A stretch of 49,807 nucleotides of DNA from a virus. Where the stretch lies: positions 1 through 49,807 of IMG/VR virus record IMGVR_UViG_3300009155_006780; one strand, given 5' to 3'. Of this stretch, positions 166-25,784 are shown in pieces (position 1 is the stretch's first letter; every line of letters starts with the position of its first letter). Both the position numbers and the translations under genes were made by a program. The notes under the pieces are model-generated. The model ran no database searches, was not told where the DNA came from, and saw nothing but the letters and a program-made list of their open reading frames with translations.

Positions 166-1659
166 ATGACATCGTGTGAAATGTGGTCAAGTCATTTTCC
201 ATTTGAAAATATTCGTGAAGAACAAGAAAAGGCAATTAATTTTGCTCTTGATGCTTACAAATCAGGAAAAAAATTTGTTATTTGCGAAATTGGAACAGGT
301 GGAGGAAAATCTGCTATTGGTGTAACAATTTCTCGCGCTCTTGGCGAGATGTTGAATCAGTCTGACGACTATACTCGAGGTGCATATTTTATCACAACCC
401 AAAAGATTCTTCAGGAGCAATACTTGAGTGACTTTGGCGGTTGCAATGGTCCAATGGTTTCACTTAAGTCAAGTGCAAATTATCAATGCAAGTTTCACAA
501 GAAGCAAACTTGTGCTGAAGGCCAGCGTCTGGTCAATTTAGAGCAGGATAAGTCTTCTAACTTCTACAAGTCTTGTATGTTTGGCTGTAGATATAAGGAG
601 CAAAAACAGAAGTTTATTGCATCACCTGAAGGTATTACAAACTTCAGTTATTTTTTGGCTGAAACAACATATTCTGGTAAGTTGACTCCTCGTGATGTTC
701 TTGTAATTGATGAGGCACACAACACTGACTCTGAACTTAGCAAGTTTATTGAAGTGACTGTGTCTGAGCGCTTTGCCAATGCAGTTTTGAACATTGACAT
801 GCCTGATAATCTACATGATGAGAATTCGGCATTTCTTTGGATTAAAGACGTTTATTGTGTAAAGCTTTCAAGTCATCTTGCTCATATTAAGTCTATGTTT
901 GAAAAATTCACAGGCCTTAGAGATAAGGTTGCTGAATTTGAAAATCTTTCTAAACAGCTAGAAATGCTTGATAAGCATTTGTGCAAAATCAATCGATTCA
1001 TTGAGTTCTTTGACGTCAAGAATTGGGTGTTCAATATTATTGAATCACCTGAACAGAAAGTTCGTAAGCTTGAATTTAAGCCTATTGATGTTTCACAATA
1101 TTCCAATGACTCTCTTTTCTATCTTGGTAGAAAGGTTTTGTTGATGTCTGCTACGATTATCAATCATCAGGCGTTTTGTGAAAGCCTTGGAATCCCTCTT
1201 GCAGATTCAGCTTTTATTAGTATTCCGTCGCCTTTCCCAATTGAAAATCGTCCAGTCATTATCAGTCCAATTGGGAAAATGAGTGCATCGGAAATTGATA
1301 AAACGCTACCCACTATGCTTGAAGCTATTAAGCAAATTGTTCGTGAGCACGAAAATGAAAAGGGAATTATTCATTGCATTGATGAAAACGAGCCTGTAAT
1401 GATGTCAGATGGACATCATAAAGCTTTAAAAGATGTCAAAGTTGGAGATAACGTTATGACGTGGTCTGAAAAACTTCAAGTTTTTGAAAGTAAAAAGGTA
1501 CTTGCAAACCTTGATAGAGGGCAACGCCAATGTCTCAAAATTAGTTTTGAAAATAACAAAACTATTACTTGTACTCCAGATCATCGTTTGTTGACCTCAA
1601 ATCGAGGTTGGGTGGAAGCACAAAATTTGACCATAGACGATGACATTATTTCTGTTTAA
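166..1659 (+). CDS. DinG/XPD-like Fe-S helicase, N-terminal half fused to Int-N of a split intein
   Basis: Residues 1-403 are the first part of a superfamily 2 Rad3/XPD/DinG-type DNA helicase, and residues 404-497 are an N-terminal split-intein half. Visible motifs are Walker A GTGGGKS (43-49) and DEAH (182-185). Four cysteines between motifs I and II (C108, C116, C137, C141) match the position of the XPD/DinG Fe-S cluster, and SAT (328-330) looks like motif III. The protein breaks at GIIH, in motif IV of the second RecA-like domain. Motifs V and VI are therefore missing here and are encoded by the next gene. The predicted spliced protein is 403 + 142 = 545 residues, a normal size for the family. 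The start is an ATG behind AAAGGTAAATAA. A role in phage replication, recombination or repair is inferred from the family. Confidence 0.85.
   Translation: MTSCEMWSSHFPFENIREEQEKAINFALDAYKSGKKFVICEIGTGGGKSAIGVTISRALGEMLNQSDDYTRGAYFITTQKILQEQYLSDFGGCNGPMVSLKSSANYQCKFHKKQTCAEGQRLVNLEQDKSSNFYKSCMFGCRYKEQKQKFIASPEGITNFSYFLAETTYSGKLTPRDVLVIDEAHNTDSELSKFIEVTVSERFANAVLNIDMPDNLHDENSAFLWIKDVYCVKLSSHLAHIKSMFEKFTGLRDKVAEFENLSKQLEMLDKHLCKINRFIEFFDVKNWVFNIIESPEQKVRKLEFKPIDVSQYSNDSLFYLGRKVLLMSATIINHQAFCESLGIPLADSAFISIPSPFPIENRPVIISPIGKMSASEIDKTLPTMLEAIKQIVREHENEKGIIHCIDENEPVMMSDGHHKALKDVKVGDNVMTWSEKLQVFESKKVLANLDRGQRQCLKISFENNKTITCTPDHRLLTSNRGWVEAQNLTIDDDIISV
1375..1656 (+). other. split intein Int-N (helicase)
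   Basis: This is the 94-residue Int-N at the end of the upstream helicase gene. It begins with Cys1 (codon 1375-1377). It has a block A pattern (C, then VMMSDG, then the turn KDVKVGDNVMTW) and a block B TxxH motif in CTPDHRLLT. The length is close to that of gp41-1-type split inteins (about 88 residues). After block B it runs into a TAA, and a second in-frame TAA follows at 1669-1671, so a single base error cannot join it to the C-terminal half. Confidence 0.88.
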
Positions 1660-17386: not shown

Positions 17387-18124
17387 ATGAAAATTGGAAT
17401 TTTAGGGTATGGAGAAATTGGCAAAGCAATTCATCAGTTGTACTCATTGTCAAATGAACATCAAATCTTTATCAAAGATATCCATCGTGATGATGGACTA
17501 ATAAACATTGACGTGTTAAACGTCTGCATACCTCAGATTAAAAATTTTGAAGAGGTTGTGATAGATATTGCAAATCGTTCAAACAGCAAAATGATAATCA
17601 TACATTCTACCATAAAAGTAGGAACAACTGAGTCAATTTCAAAAAAAACAAATTGTGATGTAGCACATTCACCAGTTCGAGGAATTCATCCAAATCTTCT
17701 TGATGGAATATTGACTTTTGTAAAGTACGTAGGAAGTGACAATATAGAAAGCAGTTCAAGAGTTGTCAATCATCTAAAAAGCTTAGGTGTAAAAGCTGTT
17801 TCATTAAAAAGCTCACGTGAAACTGAAATTGGAAAATTGTTGGATACAACATACTATGGAATTTGTATTTCATGGCATGGTGAAATGAAAAAAATGTGTG
17901 ATGAAATTGGAGCAGATTTTGAAGAGGCTGTTACACTTTTTAATGAAACTTACAATTCTGGGTACATCAAACTAGGGAAAAGTAATGTTGTAAGACCTGT
18001 TTTATTTCCTCCTGAATCAAAAATTGGTGGACATTGTGTTGTTCCAAATGCAAAAATTTTAAATGAAACATTTAAATCTGAAGGTCTTGATATGATCTTG
18101 AAATATTCAAGAGATAATGAATGA
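17387..18124 (+). CDS. short UDP-glucose/GDP-mannose dehydrogenase-like protein
   Basis: A 245-residue member of the nucleotide-sugar dehydrogenase superfamily. It shows the NAD-binding GILGYGEIG (4-12), IIHSTIKVGTTE (the STVxxGTT motif), AHSPVRG and a terminal GGHCVVPNA (214-222) that includes the catalytic-Cys motif. It ends 28 residues after that Cys and lacks the C-terminal UDP-sugar domain of full-size (about 390-450 residue) enzymes. PKD of the usual GGxCxPKD is replaced by VPN. It may be inactive, accept another substrate, or need a partner. Its GGHC site is uninterrupted, unlike the intein-split paralogue at 20-21.7 kb. Confidence 0.65.
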   Translation: MKIGILGYGEIGKAIHQLYSLSNEHQIFIKDIHRDDGLINIDVLNVCIPQIKNFEEVVIDIANRSNSKMIIIHSTIKVGTTESISKKTNCDVAHSPVRGIHPNLLDGILTFVKYVGSDNIESSSRVVNHLKSLGVKAVSLKSSRETEIGKLLDTTYYGICISWHGEMKKMCDEIGADFEEAVTLFNETYNSGYIKLGKSNVVRPVLFPPESKIGGHCVVPNAKILNETFKSEGLDMILKYSRDNE

Positions 18125-19056
18125 ATTTAATTACAGGTGCCACTGGTCTTCTTGGTAGTGAGATTTTGAATCTTTCTAAAGATTCAATTGGATTAAATTC
18201 ATCTCAGTACAATTTAGTAAGATCAACAAAATGCATTGAGCATATATTCCAAAATGATAACAGAGTAAAAACTGTTATTCATTGTGCTGCTCGCGTTGGA
18301 GGAGTAAAAGCTAACACTGACAAAGTTGCTGAATTTTTTGATGACAACATTAAAATGAACATGAATGTATTAGAAAATTGCAAAACCACAAATTTAAAGC
18401 TTGTCTCTGTATTATCGACATGCATTTATCCTGATGTTGGATATGTAAAATACCCTCTTACTGAAGACCAATTACATCTTGGTCCACCTCATGATTCTAA
18501 TTTTGGATATGCATATGCAAAACGTATGCTTGAAGTTCAAACTCGAGCATATCGCCAGCAATATGGATGCAACTTTGTATCAGTAATTCCTAATAACCTT
18601 TATGGAATTAATGACAATTATGATCTTGAAAGTGGTCATGTGATTCCTGCTCTTATTAGAAAGATTCATGAAGCTAAGATAAATGACAAATCACAGGTTG
18701 AAATATGGGGAAGTGGTCGTCCACATCGTGAATTCACATTTGCTCGTGACGCTGCAAAAATAATTTTGTGGATTGCAGAAAATTATAACGGTGCTGAACC
18801 TGTGAATATTGGAAACCCTGAAAGCATTTCAATTGCTGAACTTGCAAACATGATAGCTGAAGAAATTGGTTATACGGGCAATTTGGTATTTAATACTTCT
18901 AAGCCCGATGGGCAGTTTGAAAAACCTTCATCAAATCAAAAGCTTAGAGATCTTGGGTGGAATGGTGATTACACACCTCTTCAAGTAGGTCTAAAAGAAA
19001 CAATTAAATCATTTCAAGATAGATACCCGAGCGTAAGAGGGGTTAAAATAGTTTAA
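18121..19056 (+). CDS. fcl: GDP-L-fucose synthase
   Basis: A 311-residue short-chain dehydrogenase of the GDP-L-fucose synthase (Fcl/WcaG) family, which epimerises and reduces GDP-4-keto-6-deoxymannose to GDP-L-fucose with NADPH. Signatures are ITGATGLLGSE (4-14), CAARVGGVKAN (55-65, very typical of Fcl), a Ser-Thr-Cys at 99-101, the catalytic YAYAK (Y130, K134) and PNNLYGINDNYDLESGHVIP. Its length is normal for the family. It overlaps the gene before by 4 bases and gmd by one base, an arrangement that fits sequential enzymes of one pathway. Confidence 0.93.
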   Translation: MNLITGATGLLGSEILNLSKDSIGLNSSQYNLVRSTKCIEHIFQNDNRVKTVIHCAARVGGVKANTDKVAEFFDDNIKMNMNVLENCKTTNLKLVSVLSTCIYPDVGYVKYPLTEDQLHLGPPHDSNFGYAYAKRMLEVQTRAYRQQYGCNFVSVIPNNLYGINDNYDLESGHVIPALIRKIHEAKINDKSQVEIWGSGRPHREFTFARDAAKIILWIAENYNGAEPVNIGNPESISIAELANMIAEEIGYTGNLVFNTSKPDGQFEKPSSNQKLRDLGWNGDYTPLQVGLKETIKSFQDRYPSVRGVKIV

Positions 19057-20021
19057 TGAAAACAGCTTTTATCACAGGCGTAACCGGACAGTCCGGATCA
19101 TATCTTGCCGAGTTGCTCCTTCAAAAAGGTTACAAAGTAATTGGAATGAAGCGCCGCACATCGCTTCTTGCAACTGACAGAATTGATCACTTGTTGTCTA
19201 ATCCCAACTTTCATCTTGTTTATGGATCAATGAATGACTCAGGAGCATTTTATAATGTCTTTATGAATCATCGTTTTGATGAAGTGTACAACCTTGCAGC
19301 CCAGTCGCATGTAAGAGTGTCCTTTGAAGTTCCAGAAGAAACAGTTGATGCTGTTGCAATGGGTCCTCTTAGACTTCTTGAATGCATTAGAATGACGCAA
19401 CCACATTGTCGTTTTTATCAAGCATCATCATCTGAGATGTTCGGCGATAATCCTGAATATCCGCAAAGTGAACTTACACGCTTTATGCCAGCGTCTCCTT
19501 ATGCTTGTGCCAAGACATTTGCACACGGAATTGTAAGAAATTACCGTGAAGGTTATAAGTTGCATGCATCATCAGGAATACTTTTCAATCATGAAAGCCC
19601 ACGTCGTGGCGAAACATTTGTAACACGTAAAATTACAATGGCCGCTGCGCGTATTAAGCTTGGCATGCAAGATAAGATTGCACTTGGTAATCTTGATGCA
19701 AGGCGCGATTGGGGATATGCAAAAGATTATGTTGAAGCAATGTGGTTAATGCTTCAGCAAGATCATCCTGATGACTATGTTATTGCAACAGGTGAAACTC
19801 ACACTGTTAGAGAGTTTCTTGAAGAAGTCTTTGACATTGCTGGTCTTGATGTTGATAAGCATCTTGTGATTGATGAGAGGTTGAAACGTCCTCATGAAGT
19901 TCCGCTTTTGCTTGGTGACATGTCAAAGGCAAAAAATGTTCTTGGATGGGAACCAAAAACAAAATTTAAAGAACTTGCAAAATTGATGTATCATGAAGAT
20001 CTGAATTATTTGCAAAAGTAA
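19056..20021 (+). CDS. gmd: GDP-mannose 4,6-dehydratase
   Basis: A 321-residue GDP-D-mannose 4,6-dehydratase, producing GDP-4-keto-6-deoxy-D-mannose, the Fcl substrate. Visible are the NADP-binding AFITGVTGQSGSYLAELLL start, YNLAAQSHVRVSFE (78-91), QASSSEMFG (122-130), the catalytic YACAK (Y149, K153), NHESPRRGETFVTRKI and RRDWGYAKDYVEAMW. Length and motif order match bacterial Gmd. The base composition is visibly richer in G+C than the 14-18 kb glycosyltransferase genes, suggesting a separate origin. GDP-mannose must come from the host or from genes outside the window. Confidence 0.95.
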   Translation: MKTAFITGVTGQSGSYLAELLLQKGYKVIGMKRRTSLLATDRIDHLLSNPNFHLVYGSMNDSGAFYNVFMNHRFDEVYNLAAQSHVRVSFEVPEETVDAVAMGPLRLLECIRMTQPHCRFYQASSSEMFGDNPEYPQSELTRFMPASPYACAKTFAHGIVRNYREGYKLHASSGILFNHESPRRGETFVTRKITMAAARIKLGMQDKIALGNLDARRDWGYAKDYVEAMWLMLQQDHPDDYVIATGETHTVREFLEEVFDIAGLDVDKHLVIDERLKRPHEVPLLLGDMSKAKNVLGWEPKTKFKELAKLMYHEDLNYLQK

Positions 20022-20024
20022 TAT

Positions 20025-20048
20025 CCTCACCTTATAATAAGGTAGAGG
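20025..20048 (+). promoter_or_regulatory. SD-sequestering hairpin overlapping TATAAT before ugd
   Basis: CCTCACCTTA (20025-20034) pairs with TAAGGT, a bulged A, then GAGG (20038-20048) around a 3-base loop: 10 bp. The 3' arm hides the AGAGG ribosome site, 5 bases before the ATG at 20054. TATAAT (20033-20038) sits in the loop, and TTGCAA (20010-20015) lies 17 bases upstream as a possible -35 box. It has the same layout as the element before the Nudix gene. A transcript begun from this box would lack the 5' arm. Confidence 0.55.
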
Positions 20049-20053
20049 TAAAA

Positions 20054-21172
20054 ATGAGTGTTTGTGTAATTGGCCAAGGCTTTGTCGGCGGTAGCCTTAC
20101 AACTGTTTTGTCTGAAGCTGGTGAAACTGTCTATGCATATGACAAGCTTAAAAAGCGGGCAAAAGGAGCAGTTGAATCTTGGTGGCCTTCTTCATTAAAT
20201 GAAGCCATTAATTTTCTTGAAAATGGTATTTCCGGCCGCTCCCCAAATAACTTTTCTAAAGTTTATTTTGTTTGTCTTCCTACGCCAATGTATGAAGACG
20301 GCGCTGCCGACCTTTCTATTGTTCAAGGTGTTTTGGATGAGTTAGCATCTTTTCCTGGTGAAAGAATTGCAGTTGTGAAATCAACTGTTCCTCCAGGAAC
20401 AACTGAAAATTGGAACAAAATGTATGAAAATACTGGATTGAGAGTAATCTTTAATCCAGAGTTTTTGACTGAAGCAAATGCCTTGAACGACATGCGCAAT
20501 CAAAATAGAATTGTTTTGGGCGGACCACGTCCACAAATTAACACAGTTAAGAATGTTTTTCAGCGTGCATTTCCTAATATTCCTATCATTAAGACAAGCT
20601 CAACAACAGCTGAAATGATTAAGTACGTTACTAATTGTATGCTGGCTGTAAAAGTTTCCTTTGCAAATGAAGTTGCGCAGATTTGCGAAAAGCTTGATGC
20701 TGATGGTAAGAATATCGACTATGATAAGGTAGTTGAATATGCAAAGTTTGATAAGCGCTTAGGTGATACGCATTGGTCTGTTCCAGGCCCAGTTCCTACT
20801 CATGATGGTAGATACGTTCGTGGATTTGGAGGACATTGTCTTGTTGCTGACACAGTAGTATCTACTCCAAATGGAGACTGTCTTGTTCAGGATATCAATC
20901 CTGGTGATATAGTAACAAGTACAACACACAATCTAAATGATATTGATTTAAAAGTTGTAAATGAAGTTTCAACAAGAGAATATAATGATGAAATTATCAC
21001 ATTCTCCATAAACGTAGATGGAAAAATAAAACAAGTTTCTTGTACACCATGCCATCTTTTTCCTATTTTACGTGAAGAAAAACAAATGCTTTGTCAAGCT
21101 AAAGATATTTTAGAAACTGATGAACTATTTTTCTTAGTGGAAAGCAAAGATTTCACACAAAGGAAGAATTAG
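20054..21172 (+). CDS. ugd: UDP-glucose 6-dehydrogenase N-terminal part fused to Int-N of a split intein
   Basis: Residues 1-261 are the NAD-binding and central part of a UDP-glucose dehydrogenase, and residues 262-372 are an Int-N. Motifs are GQGFVGG (7-13), YFVCLPTPM (71-79), VVKSTVPPGTT (107-117), NPEFLTEANALND (134-146), the central helix NCMLAVKVSFANE (194-206, with the conserved Lys), and RGFGGH (256-261). The family motif GFGGxCxPKD breaks exactly before its catalytic Cys. The predicted spliced protein is 261 + 54 = 315 residues and lacks the usual C-terminal UDP-binding domain, as the paralogue at 17.4 kb also does. It should oxidise UDP-glucose, or a related sugar, to the uronic acid. 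Confidence 0.87.
   Translation: MSVCVIGQGFVGGSLTTVLSEAGETVYAYDKLKKRAKGAVESWWPSSLNEAINFLENGISGRSPNNFSKVYFVCLPTPMYEDGAADLSIVQGVLDELASFPGERIAVVKSTVPPGTTENWNKMYENTGLRVIFNPEFLTEANALNDMRNQNRIVLGGPRPQINTVKNVFQRAFPNIPIIKTSSTTAEMIKYVTNCMLAVKVSFANEVAQICEKLDADGKNIDYDKVVEYAKFDKRLGDTHWSVPGPVPTHDGRYVRGFGGHCLVADTVVSTPNGDCLVQDINPGDIVTSTTHNLNDIDLKVVNEVSTREYNDEIITFSINVDGKIKQVSCTPCHLFPILREEKQMLCQAKDILETDELFFLVESKDFTQRKN
20837..21169 (+). other. split intein Int-N (UGD)
   Basis: A 111-residue Int-N beginning at Cys262 (codon 20837-20839). Block A is CLVADTVVSTPNGD followed by VQDINPGDIV. Block B contains the TxxH motif in SCTPCHLFPI. The tail after block B (LETDELFFLVESKDF) runs into a TAG at 21170-21172. Its first residue, block A turn and block B residues fit an active intein half. 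Confidence 0.87.
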
Positions 21173-21371
21173 TTACATAGACGAAAATAATAATGAAAGA
21201 TCATATTATCCTGACTTCTTTCTTCCTGAAACTAATGAATATATTGATATTAAAAACAAATATCACTTTAGTTTGAATGAAAAAAAATGGGATTTAATTC
21301 GTAAATCAAATCCTGAAGTTAAAATAACTTTACTATTTGAAGAAGACTTAAAACAAAAGGAAATTTTATGA
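21138..21371 (+). pseudogene. remnant of a PD-(D/E)XK homing endonuclease inside the split intein
   Basis: In a third reading frame between the intein halves, 77 codons are open and end in a TGA that overlaps the Int-C ATG (ATGA). The peptide includes RSYYPDFFLPETNEYIDIKN, a PD...DxK nuclease core typical of phage homing endonucleases, then a helix (EKKWDLIRKSNPEV) and a final strand. There is no ATG or GTG start, and the 5' end overlaps the last 11 codons of Int-N in another frame. This looks like the C-terminal remainder of an endonuclease that was once joined to, or encoded between, the intein halves. Confidence 0.7.
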
Positions 21372-21499
21372 AAAGTTTTAAAATTGAAAAAATTGAAAAG
21401 TCAACATATTCTGGAAAAGTCTACAATCTAGAACTTAGAACAAATGATAAAACAAATGATGATTTATTTTGGGTGTGCAATGGAATCATTGTTCATAAT
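21368..21499 (+). other. split intein Int-C (UGD)
   Basis: A 44-residue Int-C. Block F is GKVYNLELRT...DDLFWV and block G is NGIIVHN with the penultimate His and terminal Asn. The +1 residue is Cys (21500-21502), the UGD catalytic nucleophile. It is about 10 residues longer than the helicase Int-C, the extra length being the TNDKTND loop inside block F. Confidence 0.87.
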
Positions 21500-21664
21500 T
21501 GCTTTCCAAAAGACATCAACGCTTTAATGTATCTTGCGAAAAGTTACAATATTGATCCAACCGTGATGAGTGCTGCCTGGAAAAAGAATCTTGAAGTTAG
21601 ACCTCAAGAAGATCGAGACTGGGAAAATCAAATAGGAAGAGCTGTTAGCAGGAGGAAAGAATGA
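21368..21664 (+). CDS. ugd: Int-C of split intein fused to the UGD C-terminal part
   Basis: Residues 1-44 are Int-C, and residues 45-98 continue UDP-glucose dehydrogenase from its catalytic Cys (CFPKDINALMYLAKSY), finishing the GGxCxPKD motif. The gene has its own ATG, with AAGGA upstream, that overlaps the stop of the endonuclease remnant. The C-extein has only 54 residues, so the spliced enzyme is short. It overlaps the epimerase gene by 4 bases, keeping all three in one transcription unit. Without trans-splicing neither half can be active, because the nucleophile is in one half and the cofactor site is in the other. Confidence 0.85.
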   Translation: MKSFKIEKIEKSTYSGKVYNLELRTNDKTNDDLFWVCNGIIVHNCFPKDINALMYLAKSYNIDPTVMSAAWKKNLEVRPQEDRDWENQIGRAVSRRKE

Positions 21665-22539
21665 AAGCGCTTGTAACAGGAGGCCATGGTTTTATTGGTT
21701 CTCACATTGTCGATAAGTTGATTGAAGATGGTCATCAAGTTGTTGTAATTGATGACAATTCAGCTCCTCAAAATGAAACGTTTTATAAAAACGCGCATGC
21801 CCTAAACATTATAGGTGATATTAGAGACACTAGCTTACGAAAACATTATGAAGGTGTTGATGTTGTGTTTCATCTTGCCGCAAGGTCAAGAATTCAACCA
21901 ACGATTAATTCACCAGGTGAATGTTTTTCAGTTAATGTGATGGGGACTCAAGAAGTTCTTGATGCTTCACGTGTTGCAGGTGTAAAACGAGTTGTTTATT
22001 CTGCATCATCATCATACTATGGGCATGCATCGAAACCTCCATTTTTGGAGTTTGCTCCAAAGGGCTGTGCAACTCCTTACTCATTGTCAAAGTGGCAAGG
22101 TGAAGAACTTTGTGATCTATACACAAAGCTTTATGGTTTATCAACAATTTCTCTTCGTTATTTCAATGTGTATGGACCAAGAGAACCTCTTAAGGGTGAA
22201 TATGCACCTGTTATGGGATTGTTTAAAACACAAAAAGCTTTAGGTCTTCGTATGACCATAGTTGGTGATGGAGAGCAGCGAAGAGACTTTACACATATTT
22301 CTGATGTTGTGAATGCAAATTTGCTAGCTGCAAAACACCTCTCCGTCACCGGCCCAGTGAATATTGGAACAGGAAGAAACTACTCAATTAATGAGCTTGC
22401 TAAAATGATTGGAGGTGAAACTGTAAATCTTCCTAATCGAATTGGTGAAACTCTTGTTACATTGGCTGATGTAACAAGAGCAAAAAATGAGCTTTTGTGG
22501 GAAGCTAAAGTTAAGTTAGAAGATGTCATCAACTCTTAA
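21661..22539 (+). CDS. NAD-dependent nucleotide-sugar epimerase
   Basis: A 292-residue extended short-chain dehydrogenase of the UDP-sugar 4-epimerase/UDP-glucuronate-modifying group. It shows LVTGGHGFIGSHI (4-16), HLAARSRIQPTINSP (71-85), SASSSYYG (114-121), the catalytic YSLSK (Y140, K144), RYFNVYGPRE and VGDGEQRRDFTHISDVVNANL. The overall pattern resembles WbpP-type UDP-GlcNAc/GlcA 4-epimerases more than UDP-xylose synthase. It follows UGD by a 4-base overlap, so UDP-glucuronate to UDP-galacturonate is a reasonable guess. UDP-glucose/galactose and UDP-GlcNAc/GalNAc remain possible. Confidence 0.85.
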   Translation: MKALVTGGHGFIGSHIVDKLIEDGHQVVVIDDNSAPQNETFYKNAHALNIIGDIRDTSLRKHYEGVDVVFHLAARSRIQPTINSPGECFSVNVMGTQEVLDASRVAGVKRVVYSASSSYYGHASKPPFLEFAPKGCATPYSLSKWQGEELCDLYTKLYGLSTISLRYFNVYGPREPLKGEYAPVMGLFKTQKALGLRMTIVGDGEQRRDFTHISDVVNANLLAAKHLSVTGPVNIGTGRNYSINELAKMIGGETVNLPNRIGETLVTLADVTRAKNELLWEAKVKLEDVINS

Positions 22540-22556
22540 ATTTAAGGAATAAACTA

Positions 22557-23345
22557 GTGAGTGAACTTCTGCCTAATGGCAAAAAGCATGTTTCATATTC
22601 TGAAGTTAGAAATTGGGTAGAGTGTGGTTGGCGCCACTATCTCCAACAGATTAAAAAGATCAATCTTGATAAGCCATCTGAGCATCTTGATTTTGGAACA
22701 ATTGTTCACGCTGCATGTGAAAATTACTTAAAAACTCGAACGATGGATTCTGAAAAATGTGTAATGGAAATTGTTCAAGCCTGGGATAACAAAGGTTTTC
22801 CAGAAGCTGAAAAGTGGGCTAATTGGGCCAACAATATTGTTGCAGACGTTCCTGCATGGCTTGATGAAACATTTCCTGGTTGGGAGACAGTTGCTGCCGA
22901 GCAAAGTCTTTATGAAAACATTGAAGGTTACAATGCTTATTTTAAGGGTTTTGTAGACTCAATCATAAAGGTTCCAAAAGGTGATAAATACGAAATTTGG
23001 ATTCTTGACTGGAAGACTGCAGGTGCGGGCGGATGGTCACCTGATAAGAAGCAAAATCCACTTACCATAGCTCAGCTTTCTCTTTACAAATACTTTCTTA
23101 AGGACAAGTATCCTGAGCTATTTGAAGGAGCAAAATATGTAAAGTGTGGATTTGTTCTCCTTAAAAAGGGAGCAAAGCAAGGAAAGTGTGTTGAGTTATT
23201 TACAGTATCAGTTGGTCCTGTCACAATGGAAAAAGGAATAAAGCTTGTAAAAAATACTGTGGCAGGTATGAGACGAGGAATCAAGCTAAAAAATAGAGAA
23301 TCGTGTAAGTATTGCCCATATTTTGAAACCGAACACTGTACGTAA
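22557..23345 (+). CDS. PD-(D/E)XK nuclease with Cas4/AddB-like Fe-S cysteines
   Basis: A 262-residue RecB-family nuclease. FGTIVHAACE supplies H51, FKGFVDSI supplies D134, ILDWKTA supplies the DxK pair (D151, K153), and AQLSLYKYF is motif QxxxY (Q173, Y177). C23 near the start and C250-x2-C253-x7-C261 at the end match the one-plus-three cysteine Fe-S layout of Cas4 and AddB. These enzymes trim DNA ends in recombination or repair. It starts at GTG (22557) behind AAGGAA. It sits among sugar genes but is more likely part of phage DNA metabolism. No Cas1 or CRISPR repeats are present in the window. Confidence 0.85.
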   Translation: MSELLPNGKKHVSYSEVRNWVECGWRHYLQQIKKINLDKPSEHLDFGTIVHAACENYLKTRTMDSEKCVMEIVQAWDNKGFPEAEKWANWANNIVADVPAWLDETFPGWETVAAEQSLYENIEGYNAYFKGFVDSIIKVPKGDKYEIWILDWKTAGAGGWSPDKKQNPLTIAQLSLYKYFLKDKYPELFEGAKYVKCGFVLLKKGAKQGKCVELFTVSVGPVTMEKGIKLVKNTVAGMRRGIKLKNRESCKYCPYFETEHCT

Positions 23346-23363
23346 TTTACTTATGCTTTTTTT

Positions 23364-23393
23364 AAAGTATCCTTTTAAATGAGAGGGTGCTTT
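23364..23393 (+). promoter_or_regulatory. hairpin covering ribosome site and TTG start
   Basis: AAAGTATCC (23364-23372) pairs with GGGTGCTTT (23385-23393): 9 bp with two G-T pairs and a 12-base loop. The 3' arm covers most of the GAGGG ribosome site and the first two bases of the TTG start at 23392. Found by eye. Confidence 0.35.
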
Positions 23394-24630
23394 GCCTAAA
23401 AAGAAGATTTTGGTTCTTTCTGATCATGCTCTATCGACATCAGGTGTTGGAACACAAACACGACACCTGATTAACGGCCTCCTGAAAAAAGGTGAATGGA
23501 CTTTTAGACAGTTTGGGGCCGCTATCAAGCATAATGATTATAGAACAATTGTTGTAAATGATGATTTTATTATCAAGCCAATAGATGGGTTTGGAAATAA
23601 AGATTTGATCAGGATCACATTGGCCACGGAAAAGCCAGACTTGATTCTGATTTTTACTGATCCCAGGTTTTTTACCTGGCTGTTTGATATGGAAGATGAG
23701 ATCCATCAGGTATGCCCAATTGCGTGGTGGCACGTTTGGGACAACTGGCCAAAGCCAAGTTTCAACATGCCTTTTTATCATTCAACTGATCTCATCAATT
23801 GTCATTCATACTTAACATATGAAATCTGCAAGCAGGATTTCCCTGAAAAGACAAATTTCGTTCCTCATGCTCTACCGAACGACATGTTTTTTCCACTTAC
23901 TGCTGAACAAAGAATTGAGCAAAAGAAAGCTATCTTGAAAGATAAGGCTGACAATTTTGTTTTGTTCTGGGTAAATAGAAATGCAAGAAGAAAGAGGCCT
24001 TCAGACCTCATTCACGCTTGGTCATTGTTCCGCAGGCGAATTGAAGCACTTGGTAAAAAAGATGCAACTTTGATTATGCATACTGATCCATTGGATCAGG
24101 AAGGTCCAAACTTGCATGAAGTGACCAAGCTTTATAATGTCCAAGACAGCGTTGTTTTTTCAACAGACAGAATTGATTTTGACAAAATGAATGTGTTGCA
24201 TAACATTTCAGATGCATGTATCAATATTTCATATGCTGAAGGATTTGGACTTTCTACTCTTGAAGCAATGCAGTGTGGTCGCCCAATCATTGCGGCAAAG
24301 ACTGGTGGTCTTACTAGACAAGTTGTAGATCATCGTGATGGAACTGAAAACGGCGTTGCTCTTCCAATTGAGTTTAAGACATGTGTAGGATCGCAGGTCG
24401 TTCCATACATTTATGAAGATTACACATCTGTTGAAACAATTGCCAATGCAATTGAAAAGATGTATAATATGCCTGTTGCTGAGCGTCAAGCACTTGGTGA
24501 AAAAGCTCAAGCATATGTCAAGAGTGAATTTTCATATGACATGATAATTGATCGCTGGCATGATACACTAAATGAAACAATAAAAAATTGGAAGAGTAGA
24601 AGAAAAAATTGGGAGATGGTAACACTATGA
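23392..24630 (+). CDS. GT4-family glycosyltransferase
   Basis: A 412-residue GT-B fold glycosyltransferase of the GT4/RfaG type. It starts with KKKILVLSDHALSTSGVGTQTRHLI, the glycine-rich acceptor-domain loop. FVLFWVNRNARRKRPSDLIHAW (phosphate-binding basic patch) comes at about 188-209. The C-terminal EGFGLSTLEAMQCGRPIIAAKTGG contains the EX7E motif that binds the sugar-nucleotide. Retaining enzymes of this family use UDP- or GDP-sugars made by neighbouring genes. The TTG start with GAGGG is supported because the first beta strand begins at residue 4. It overlaps the next gene by 4 bases (ATGA). Confidence 0.88.
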   Translation: MPKKKILVLSDHALSTSGVGTQTRHLINGLLKKGEWTFRQFGAAIKHNDYRTIVVNDDFIIKPIDGFGNKDLIRITLATEKPDLILIFTDPRFFTWLFDMEDEIHQVCPIAWWHVWDNWPKPSFNMPFYHSTDLINCHSYLTYEICKQDFPEKTNFVPHALPNDMFFPLTAEQRIEQKKAILKDKADNFVLFWVNRNARRKRPSDLIHAWSLFRRRIEALGKKDATLIMHTDPLDQEGPNLHEVTKLYNVQDSVVFSTDRIDFDKMNVLHNISDACINISYAEGFGLSTLEAMQCGRPIIAAKTGGLTRQVVDHRDGTENGVALPIEFKTCVGSQVVPYIYEDYTSVETIANAIEKMYNMPVAERQALGEKAQAYVKSEFSYDMIIDRWHDTLNETIKNWKSRRKNWEMVTL

Positions 24631-25784
24631 GAATTCTTGTTCGTGGTCCATTGCTTAGCGAATCTGGGTATGGAAATCATGCTCGACAAGTTTTTCGCTG
24701 GCTTTTGAAAAAGCATTCAAATCATGATATCACAACGCAGTGTCTTCCATGGGGAACAACCAGCTGGTACGTAAACACTGATGCTGAAGATGGTTTAATT
24801 GGTGAAATCACAAAGCGCTCAAAAGGAATTGAAGGCCAGTATGATATATCATTTCAGATTCAACTTCCTAATGAATGGGATCCTGCTTTAGCAAAATATA
24901 ATGTAGGAATCACTGCACTTGTTGAAGCTGATAAGTGTAATCCTGCATGGGTGCAAGCATGTAAGAGAATGAACACTGTTATTGTCCCTTCTACTTTTTG
25001 CAAAAAAACTTTGGAAAACACTGGGTTTGATCAAGACAATTTGCATGTCATTCCTGAAAGCTTTATGCCTGAAGTTCTTAAGAATGTTCAAAAATCAAAG
25101 CTTAACTTTAGCACTAAGTTTAACTTTCTTATGCTTGGAACAATGACTGGCAATAACCCACATAATGATCGTAAGAATATTCTTTTTGGATTAAAGTGGT
25201 TGTGTGAAGAGTTTAAAAACGACCCTGAAGTTGGAATTGTTATTAAGACAAACGTCGGTCGTGGAACTCGAATGGATTGGCAAGGTGTTGAAAATATGTT
25301 CAAGGGTGTTCTTAATGAAGTAAGAAAAGGACCCTACCCAAAAGTTCATCTTATTCATGGCATGATGTCAAGCGAAGAAATAGTTGCAATGTATAAGCAT
25401 CCAGATATCAAGGCATTGGTTGCTCCTACACGCGGTGAAGGGTTCGGACTTCCTTTGTTAGAAGCATCAGCTTGTGGATTGCCTGTTATTTCAACTAATC
25501 ATAGTGGCCATCTTGACTTTATGGATCTTGGACGTTCAATTAAGTTTGACTATGACATGATAGAAATTCATGAAACAAGAGCTGATCCTCATATTTGGAT
25601 GAAAGGAACTAAATGGGCTCATGTAAAAGAAAGCGATTTCAAGAGTAAGATAAAAAAGTTTAGAAACAATCATTCTATTCCTGAAACGTGGGCAAAAGAT
25701 CTTTCTAAAAAATTGATTACTACCCATAGCCCTGACGCAATCGATGAAATTTATGAGCAAAAGCTATGTCACCTACTGCGTTAA
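24627..25784 (+). CDS. GT4-family glycosyltransferase
   Basis: A 385-residue GT4/GT1-like glycosyltransferase. MRILVRGPLLSESGYGNHARQ forms the N-terminal acceptor loop. FNFLMLGTMTGNNPHNDRKNI and VIKTNVGRG belong to the C-terminal Rossmann domain, and GEGFGLPLLEASACGLPVISTNHSG carries the EX7E motif. It resembles its upstream neighbour in plan but not closely in sequence. The ATG at 24627 is chosen because it overlaps the preceding stop (ATGA); an in-frame TTG at 24609 is possible. It is the last glycan gene before the sigma and baseplate block, and its end overlaps the membrane protein gene by 19 bases. Confidence 0.87.
   Translation: MRILVRGPLLSESGYGNHARQVFRWLLKKHSNHDITTQCLPWGTTSWYVNTDAEDGLIGEITKRSKGIEGQYDISFQIQLPNEWDPALAKYNVGITALVEADKCNPAWVQACKRMNTVIVPSTFCKKTLENTGFDQDNLHVIPESFMPEVLKNVQKSKLNFSTKFNFLMLGTMTGNNPHNDRKNILFGLKWLCEEFKNDPEVGIVIKTNVGRGTRMDWQGVENMFKGVLNEVRKGPYPKVHLIHGMMSSEEIVAMYKHPDIKALVAPTRGEGFGLPLLEASACGLPVISTNHSGHLDFMDLGRSIKFDYDMIEIHETRADPHIWMKGTKWAHVKESDFKSKIKKFRNNHSIPETWAKDLSKKLITTHSPDAIDEIYEQKLCHLLR

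What the first reader, a model, noticed from the sequence alone, without database searches (positions are those of the whole stretch)
20054..21664. Split intein placed exactly before the catalytic cysteine of UDP-glucose dehydrogenase
The UGD family motif GFGGxCxPKD is cut between GGH and CFPKD. The upstream gene ends with an Int-N (Cys1, block A, TxxH), and the downstream gene begins with an Int-C (NGIIVHN) followed by the catalytic Cys as the +1 residue. Neither half can be active alone, so trans-splicing would act as an on-switch for uronic-acid sugar production. Each half has its own start. I know of split inteins in phage helicase, nucleotide reductase and IMPDH genes (the fractured genes reported from marine metagenomes), but I do not recall one in UGD.
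Basis: partly seen in the sequence, partly recalled or inferred. Interest (0 to 1): 0.9.

Follow-up and report, generated by a model that had tools for sequence, protein, structure and literature searches.

The report
Split intein in phage sugar-dehydrogenase gene
A phage gene for a sugar-oxidising enzyme is broken in two exactly at its catalytic cysteine by a split intein (two protein pieces that stitch the enzyme halves together and cut themselves out), and related phages show the element intact with its DNA-cutting gene, decayed, or absent, so it looks like a mobile parasite and not a switch.

Summary
In this 49.8-kb virus fragment a short UGD-type dehydrogenase is encoded as ExtN-IntN (20054-21172) and IntC-ExtC (21368-21664), cut at GFGGH|CFPKD. 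Profiles built only from relatives find IntN, IntC and a piece of an endonuclease at exactly these places (E 6e-26, 1e-22, 9e-31).

About 19 other distinct viral loci have UGD split at the same site; nearly all whose gap is seen carry an intact HEN there. A syntenic relative has an unbroken allele, 84% identical. Two divergent phages share the element at 79-86% nt identity inside exteins only 57% identical, so it moves as a unit.

Best reading: a 'fractured gene' (split intein plus HEN) at the HEN-eroded stage, kept because excision must be precise and trans-splicing restores the enzyme. The 'on-switch' idea has no support. Contiguous inteins at this site are known in cells; I found no report of a split one in UGD. 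Splicing itself is untested.

The parts
20054..20836 (+). N-extein of the short UGD-type dehydrogenase (261 aa, ends ...YVRGFGGH)
   Evidence: PF03721 E 5e-26, PF00984 E 4e-15, phrog_9148 E 7e-46; AlphaFold model best matches solved UGDs
20837..21169 (+). IntN: Cys1, block B TPCH; last ~12 residues (VESKDFTQRKN) are probably out-of-frame endonuclease sequence left by the deletion
   Evidence: leave-one-out profile E 6.4e-26; Cys1 and TxxH in 22 of 22 split loci; alignment to L069/L077
21138..21371 (+). remnant of a homing endonuclease: C-terminal catalytic half only (HKGRISY..YYPDF..DIK), +1 frame relative to IntN, no start codon, stop TGA overlapping the IntC ATG (ATGA, 21368-21371)
   Evidence: 69% identity to the HEN of L052/L053; profile E 8.9e-31 over model positions 191-261 of 263; phrog_945 endonuclease E 2e-8
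21357..21361 (+). Shine-Dalgarno-like AAGGA six nt before the IntC start
   Evidence: direct sequence
21368..21499 (+). IntC (44 aa, ends GIIVHN)
   Evidence: leave-one-out profile E 1.1e-22; TIGR01443 20.3 bits, cut-off 15.6; HN at the end in 29 of 29 loci
21500..21661 (+). C-extein of UGD (54 aa, starts CFPKD; the +1 splicing Cys is the enzyme's catalytic Cys)
   Evidence: PF00984; 87% identical to the C end of the unbroken UGD of L004

Best explanation
The UGD-type gene is a 'fractured gene': a split-intein mobile element sits at the catalytic-cysteine codon. IntN and IntC are made as separate chains with their exteins, associate, and splice in trans, with Cys1 as first nucleophile, the terminal Asn cyclising, and the enzyme's own catalytic Cys as the +1 nucleophile, giving a seamless 315-aa dehydrogenase. 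The element spreads when a homing endonuclease encoded between the halves cuts uninterrupted UGD alleles at the GFGGH-CFPKD coding sequence and repair copies IntN-HEN-IntC in. In this phage the HEN has lost about 530 nt (its zinc-finger/DNA-binding part and first catalytic residue), so the element here is splicing-competent by sequence but no longer able to home by itself. Shown by sequence: anatomy, conserved splicing residues, HEN decay, empty alleles, lateral transfer. Inferred: that trans-splicing occurs, that the HEN cuts this site, that the enzyme is active.
For: Anatomy and leave-one-out profiles. Cys1 and TxxH in 22/22 IntN, HN|C in 29/29 IntC. Same split with intact HEN in L052/L053/L069, L057, L066, L074, L075, L077-L080, L209, L220, L234, L246. 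Empty syntenic allele L004: extein 84% aa identical, dN/dS 0.08, neighbouring genes 74-94% identical. Occupancy needs 8 changes on the extein tree; window and empty L004 are sisters, 100/96. Window's intein groups with L069/L077/L209 (98/93) although its extein groups with L004 and L059; window+L059 rejected as an intein clade, p-AU 3e-6. L079 vs L246: IntN/HEN/IntC 79/86/81% nt identity between exteins and flanks of 57-60%, falling at both intein junctions. HEN family found mostly beside or inside NDP-sugar dehydrogenase genes.
Against: No splicing or cleavage assay. IntN scores below TIGR01445's curated cut-off and the AlphaFold model of IntN is only moderately confident. The extein topology that conflicts with the intein tree is not firmly rejected (AU 0.10), so the window's own acquisition history is less certain than that of L079/L246. 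The HEN target is inferred from gene position only.
Confidence: 0.87

Rival explanations
1. The split is a regulatory on-switch: the phage keeps the enzyme in two halves so that trans-splicing controls uronic-acid sugar synthesis.
For: Each half alone lacks part of the active site; IntC has its own ribosome site and its start overlaps the HEN stop, which would allow its expression to be set separately.
Against: Close relatives run the same cassette with an unbroken UGD; presence is patchy and follows a mobile element with a nuclease; no conditional element was found; both halves lie in the same direction in one gene cluster.
Confidence: 0.04
2. The gene is dead: a former contiguous intein plus endonuclease broken by frameshift and deletion, leaving two useless fragments.
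For: The HEN is a real pseudogene; a UGD-like paralogue lies at 17387-18124 and could replace it.
Against: The split at this point is ancestral, since relatives with an intact HEN are also split with separate starts; all splicing and catalytic residues are kept; extein dN/dS 0.08 against L004 and IntC dN/dS about 0.15-0.18 against L077/L069.
Confidence: 0.07
3. Programmed frameshifting or readthrough joins IntN, the HEN remnant frame and IntC into one chain, so splicing is in cis.
For: The three reading frames overlap or abut (21138-21172; 21368-21371).
Against: Two different frame changes would be needed; IntC has a good ribosome site and ATG; relatives have 30-870 nt gaps with complete stop codons and separate genes.
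Confidence: 0.02

Closest known systems
Fractured genes with split inteins and free-standing homing endonucleases (Dassa et al. 2009, doi 10.1093/nar/gkp095; not held here, known from memory and citations)
   Same: Host gene broken by a split intein with a separate endonuclease gene between the halves, in phage sequences; IntN ~100 aa, IntC ~35-49 aa
   Different: As I recall the abstract, those host genes were eight types of DNA synthesis/repair enzymes and half had a Vsr-like (EDxHD) nuclease; here the host is an NDP-sugar dehydrogenase and the nuclease carries PD-(D/E)xK residues with best sequence match to T7 endonuclease I. In the window itself the nuclease is eroded
Contiguous UGD ('udp') inteins of halobacteria, methanococci and bacteria (PMC4071816)
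   Same: Same insertion point, GGxC...HN|CFPKD
   Different: One chain, 368-490 aa in most sampled (170-178 aa mini forms too). Splicing domains form a separate branch from the phage split ones (92/95), so the site was probably colonised more than once
gp41-1 split intein (PDB 6qaz)
   Same: Only PDB sequence match to the window IntN+IntC, with the same block order and an HLFP motif after block B
   Different: Very distant (E 0.19); helicase host; not the same allele
I-Bth0305I homing endonuclease and T7 endonuclease I (nuclease domains)
   Same: HEN profile hits T7 endonuclease I at E 1e-6; AlphaFold model of the L069 HEN matches the I-Bth0305I catalytic domain, probability 0.97, TM (target) 0.55
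   Different: Foldseek E 0.11 is not significant; HEN has an N-terminal Cys4 zinc-finger-like part and conserved D-x-K
Collaborative homing / intronless homing (reviewed in PMC2988022, PMC10448857)
   Same: Stand-alone HENs lie next to the gene they are thought to target, and the same HEN lineage occurs with the intervening element
   Different: Here the intervening element is a split intein and the gene is UGD; cleavage is untested

Membership tests
Inteins (Hint splicing domains) | Nucleophile at intein position 1 (Cys/Ser) | tested here: met
   Cys1 at 20837; 22 of 22 split loci
Inteins (Hint splicing domains) | Block B TxxH | tested here: met
   TPCH in window; TxxH[LI]xP in 22 of 22
Inteins (Hint splicing domains) | Block G His-Asn plus Cys/Ser/Thr +1 | tested here: met
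   HN|C in window and all 29 loci; TIGR01443 over cut-off
Inteins (Hint splicing domains) | Curated N-terminal and whole-domain profile cut-offs | tested here: not met
   TIGR01445 15.3 vs 24.5; PF14890 24.2 vs 35.8; Hint_2 25.5 vs 28.4 bits, all below. Relatives-only profiles give E 6e-26 and 1e-22, so I read this as divergence
Inteins (Hint splicing domains) | Splicing activity | not testable with these tools
   needs co-expression
Fractured genes (split intein + free-standing HEN) | Conserved enzyme gene broken in two by IntN and IntC on separate ORFs | tested here: met
   unbroken allele L004
Fractured genes (split intein + free-standing HEN) | Separate endonuclease gene between the halves | tested here: inconclusive
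   Window: only a remnant. Relatives with the same intein: intact HEN ORF
Fractured genes (split intein + free-standing HEN) | Mobility | tested here: met
   L079/L246 identity contrast; patchy occupancy
Vsr-like/EDxHD homing endonucleases | EDxHD catalytic motif and fold | tested here: inconclusive
   Conserved residues fit PD-(D/E)xK instead; weak fold match to I-Bth0305I
UDP-glucose dehydrogenase | N-terminal NAD and central domains with catalytic residues | tested here: met
   PF03721, PF00984, motifs present; fold match to UGDs
UDP-glucose dehydrogenase | C-terminal UDP-binding domain | tested here: not met
   No C-terminal-domain match in the joined 315-aa protein; most intact phage homologues collected are about equally short (~280-330 aa). 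Hence 'UGD-type'

The most novel reading that the evidence does not exclude
One endonuclease lineage specialised on NDP-sugar dehydrogenase genes switches between two lives: stand-alone directly downstream of an intact UGD whose active-site target is altered (GFSLSC, GFSGSC, GFAGSC, FCKD, FVKD..., giving self-immunity), and inside a split intein at an unaltered target. That would be collaborative homing building a fractured gene, caught at every stage in one gene family.
Probability: 0.4. Interest if true: 0.75.

Novelty: new member of a known kind. Interest (0 to 1): 0.6.

Why it matters
It extends fractured genes from DNA-metabolism enzymes (as recalled from Dassa et al.) to carbohydrate genes, with about 20 natural split inteins to test for fast trans-splicing. 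Empty, full, eroded and stand-alone-endonuclease states exist in related phages, so the proposed route from a free-standing homing endonuclease to a composite mobile intein can be tested directly. It also warns against reading broken phage metabolic genes as either dead or regulatory.

Tried and rejected
(1) 'On-switch': no supporting feature. (2) Chance or misassembly: rejected by leave-one-out profiles and ~20 independent contigs. (3) A close link between phage split and cellular contiguous UGD inteins: they fall on separate branches (92/95), but deep support is modest (split clade 83/86), so single versus double origin is not settled. (4) Altered active-site motif and stand-alone HEN: 12 of 12 versus 5 of 20, Fisher p 3e-5, but only 5 independent pairs on well-supported branches, all in the predicted direction or tied, sign test p 0.25: suggestive only. 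(5) Naming the HEN family by fold: no significant Foldseek match. (6) A first pattern was too degenerate and one later pattern ended too strictly. (7) Dassa et al. 2009 is not in the library, so its host-gene list was not checked. (8) The scan for IntC relatives returned UGD and related dehydrogenases plus one unrelated hit (L303), so it gave no donor gene for the intein. (9) Window-intein search alone found only a different split intein in a UvsW-like helicase (L049-L051).

Full report
WHAT IS THERE. The window is a 49,807-base linear virus record. ORF 20054-21172 encodes 261 aa of a UGD-type dehydrogenase, then a 111-aa IntN starting at Cys (20837) with a TPCH block B. ORF 21368-21664 encodes a 44-aa IntC ending GIIVHN, then CFPKD and the rest of the enzyme. 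The joined exteins make 315 aa with all the named catalytic motifs, and the Pfam central domain is completed only by joining (56.2 and 20.8 bits apart, 83.1 joined). Profiles built from relatives, window excluded, find IntN at E 6.4e-26 and IntC at E 1.1e-22 in the six-frame translation; the only other IntN hit is the helicase intein at 166-1656.

The gap between the halves carries an open frame (21138-21371) in the +1 frame relative to IntN, encoding HKGRISY...YYPDF...DIK. It is 69% identical to the C-terminal part of a 233-aa endonuclease in L052/L053 and matches the HEN profile at E 8.9e-31 over positions 191-261 of 263. The N-terminal Cys4 part, the NUMOD3-like part and the QGTWE catalytic segment are gone. 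Compared with L069, the stretch between IntN and IntC is about 530 nt shorter. The remnant stop overlaps the IntC start (ATGA), and IntC has AAGGA six nt upstream of its ATG.

RELATIVES. Scans of viral contigs with the UGD half, the HEN remnant, the junction HN|CFPKD, a HEN alignment and an IntC alignment give about 21 other contigs (about 19 distinct) with the same split at the same point. Most have an intact 240-290-codon HEN between the halves with conserved QGTWE, HxGR, YYPDF and (D/E)xK; L059, with the most similar extein among split carriers, has its own eroded HEN. A sister set (L235, L239, L241, L247, L249, L252-L254, L296) has the same intein type at the matching Cys of another NDP-sugar dehydrogenase (GMGDGG[AG]|C..HN|CHPRD). 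Contiguous inteins at the same UGD site occur widely in bacteria and archaea and in a few viral contigs, and are known from the literature.

MOBILITY. L004 is an uninterrupted allele: extein 84% identical, dN/dS 0.08, and the downstream epimerase, exonuclease and two glycosyltransferase genes 74-94% identical. On the extein tree the window and L004 are sisters (100/96) and occupancy needs 8 changes. On intein trees the window groups with L069, L077 and L209 (98/93; 99/98), not with L059; window+L059 is rejected (p-AU 2.7e-6). The converse extein test is not significant (0.10), so I do not claim a proven transfer into the window itself. The clearest case is L079/L246: extein 57% nt identity, flanks 59-60%, but IntN 79%, HEN 86%, IntC 81%, with the change at both intein junctions. 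The split element moves as one unit.

STAND-ALONE ENDONUCLEASE. The same HEN family lies directly downstream of intact UGD genes in L005 and L210-L218 (about a dozen contigs, including L221, L222, L236, L258). The split-intein HENs of L209/L077/L052 share a starred branch (98/91) with six of these stand-alone ones. In all 12 non-redundant cases scored the GGHC[FL]PKD motif of the neighbouring UGD is altered, against 5 of 20 HEN-less ones (Fisher p 3e-5), but phylogenetic pairing leaves too few independent contrasts. This is the most novel lead and remains unproven.

MECHANISM. From established intein chemistry: association of IntN and IntC, acyl shift at Cys1, transesterification to the +1 Cys, Asn cyclisation, ligation. 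The +1 residue is the enzyme's catalytic Cys, so the phage cannot lose the element imprecisely without losing the enzyme; the argument that insertion at critical sites protects such elements is in PMC2988022. HEN-driven homing into empty UGD alleles is inferred from position, phylogeny and the L079/L246 pattern. In the window the HEN is dead, so only splicing is expected to persist. IntC dN/dS of about 0.15-0.18 against L077/L069 fits continued function; several of the other synonymous estimates are saturated.

CAUTIONS. The joined protein lacks the C-terminal UDP-binding domain of cellular UGDs, so substrate and activity are uncertain. The AlphaFold model confirms the UGD fold of the N-extein but the IntN part is only moderately confident; the HEN model gives no significant PDB fold match, although its sequence profile hits T7 endonuclease I. 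In the searched library no paper joins split inteins with UGD, and none joins inteins with sugar dehydrogenases under that name; the key 2009 paper could not be read.

Noticed in passing
window 166-1659 and 1707-2237: A second split intein in the same fragment, in a DinG/Rad3-type helicase: IntN Cys1 at 1375 (94 aa), IntC 1707-1808, junction KGIIH|CHSYK, 47-nt gap and no endonuclease; both halves pass the NCBIfam intein cut-offs.
   Followed up: partly
window 17387-18124: A second, shorter UGD-like gene (245 aa) with GGHCVVPN and no intein, also found upstream of UGD in L210 and, by its site motif, in L006/L007.
   Followed up: partly
L210-L218, L221, L222, L236, L258 and L005: Stand-alone endonuclease genes directly after intact UGD genes whose active-site motif differs from GGHC[FL]PKD.
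   Followed up: partly
L235, L239, L241, L247, L249, L252-L254; L296 (IntN stop near 2928, IntC from about 2959): Same split-intein family at the catalytic Cys of another NDP-sugar dehydrogenase (CHPRD type); L296 has only a 30-nt gap and no endonuclease.
   Followed up: partly
L049 684-2020 (also L050, L051): UvsW-like helicase gene split by IntN and IntC at DE|CFHPD..AN|CHQAK with a different endonuclease between the halves.
   Followed up: no
L008 5992-6738: A UGD gene that has lost the stretch just before the catalytic Cys (YVTNVHSCFCKD), next to a truncated UGD-like paralogue.
   Followed up: no
L204 (crAssphage cr131_1) and L205 (cr7_1): Terminase large-subunit gene carrying an intein whose C-terminal part resembles the window IntC at 46-49% identity.
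   Followed up: no
window 18121-25784: Nucleotide-sugar and glycosyltransferase cassette (epimerases, GDP-mannose dehydratase, two probable glycosyltransferases) with an exonuclease in its middle.
   Followed up: no
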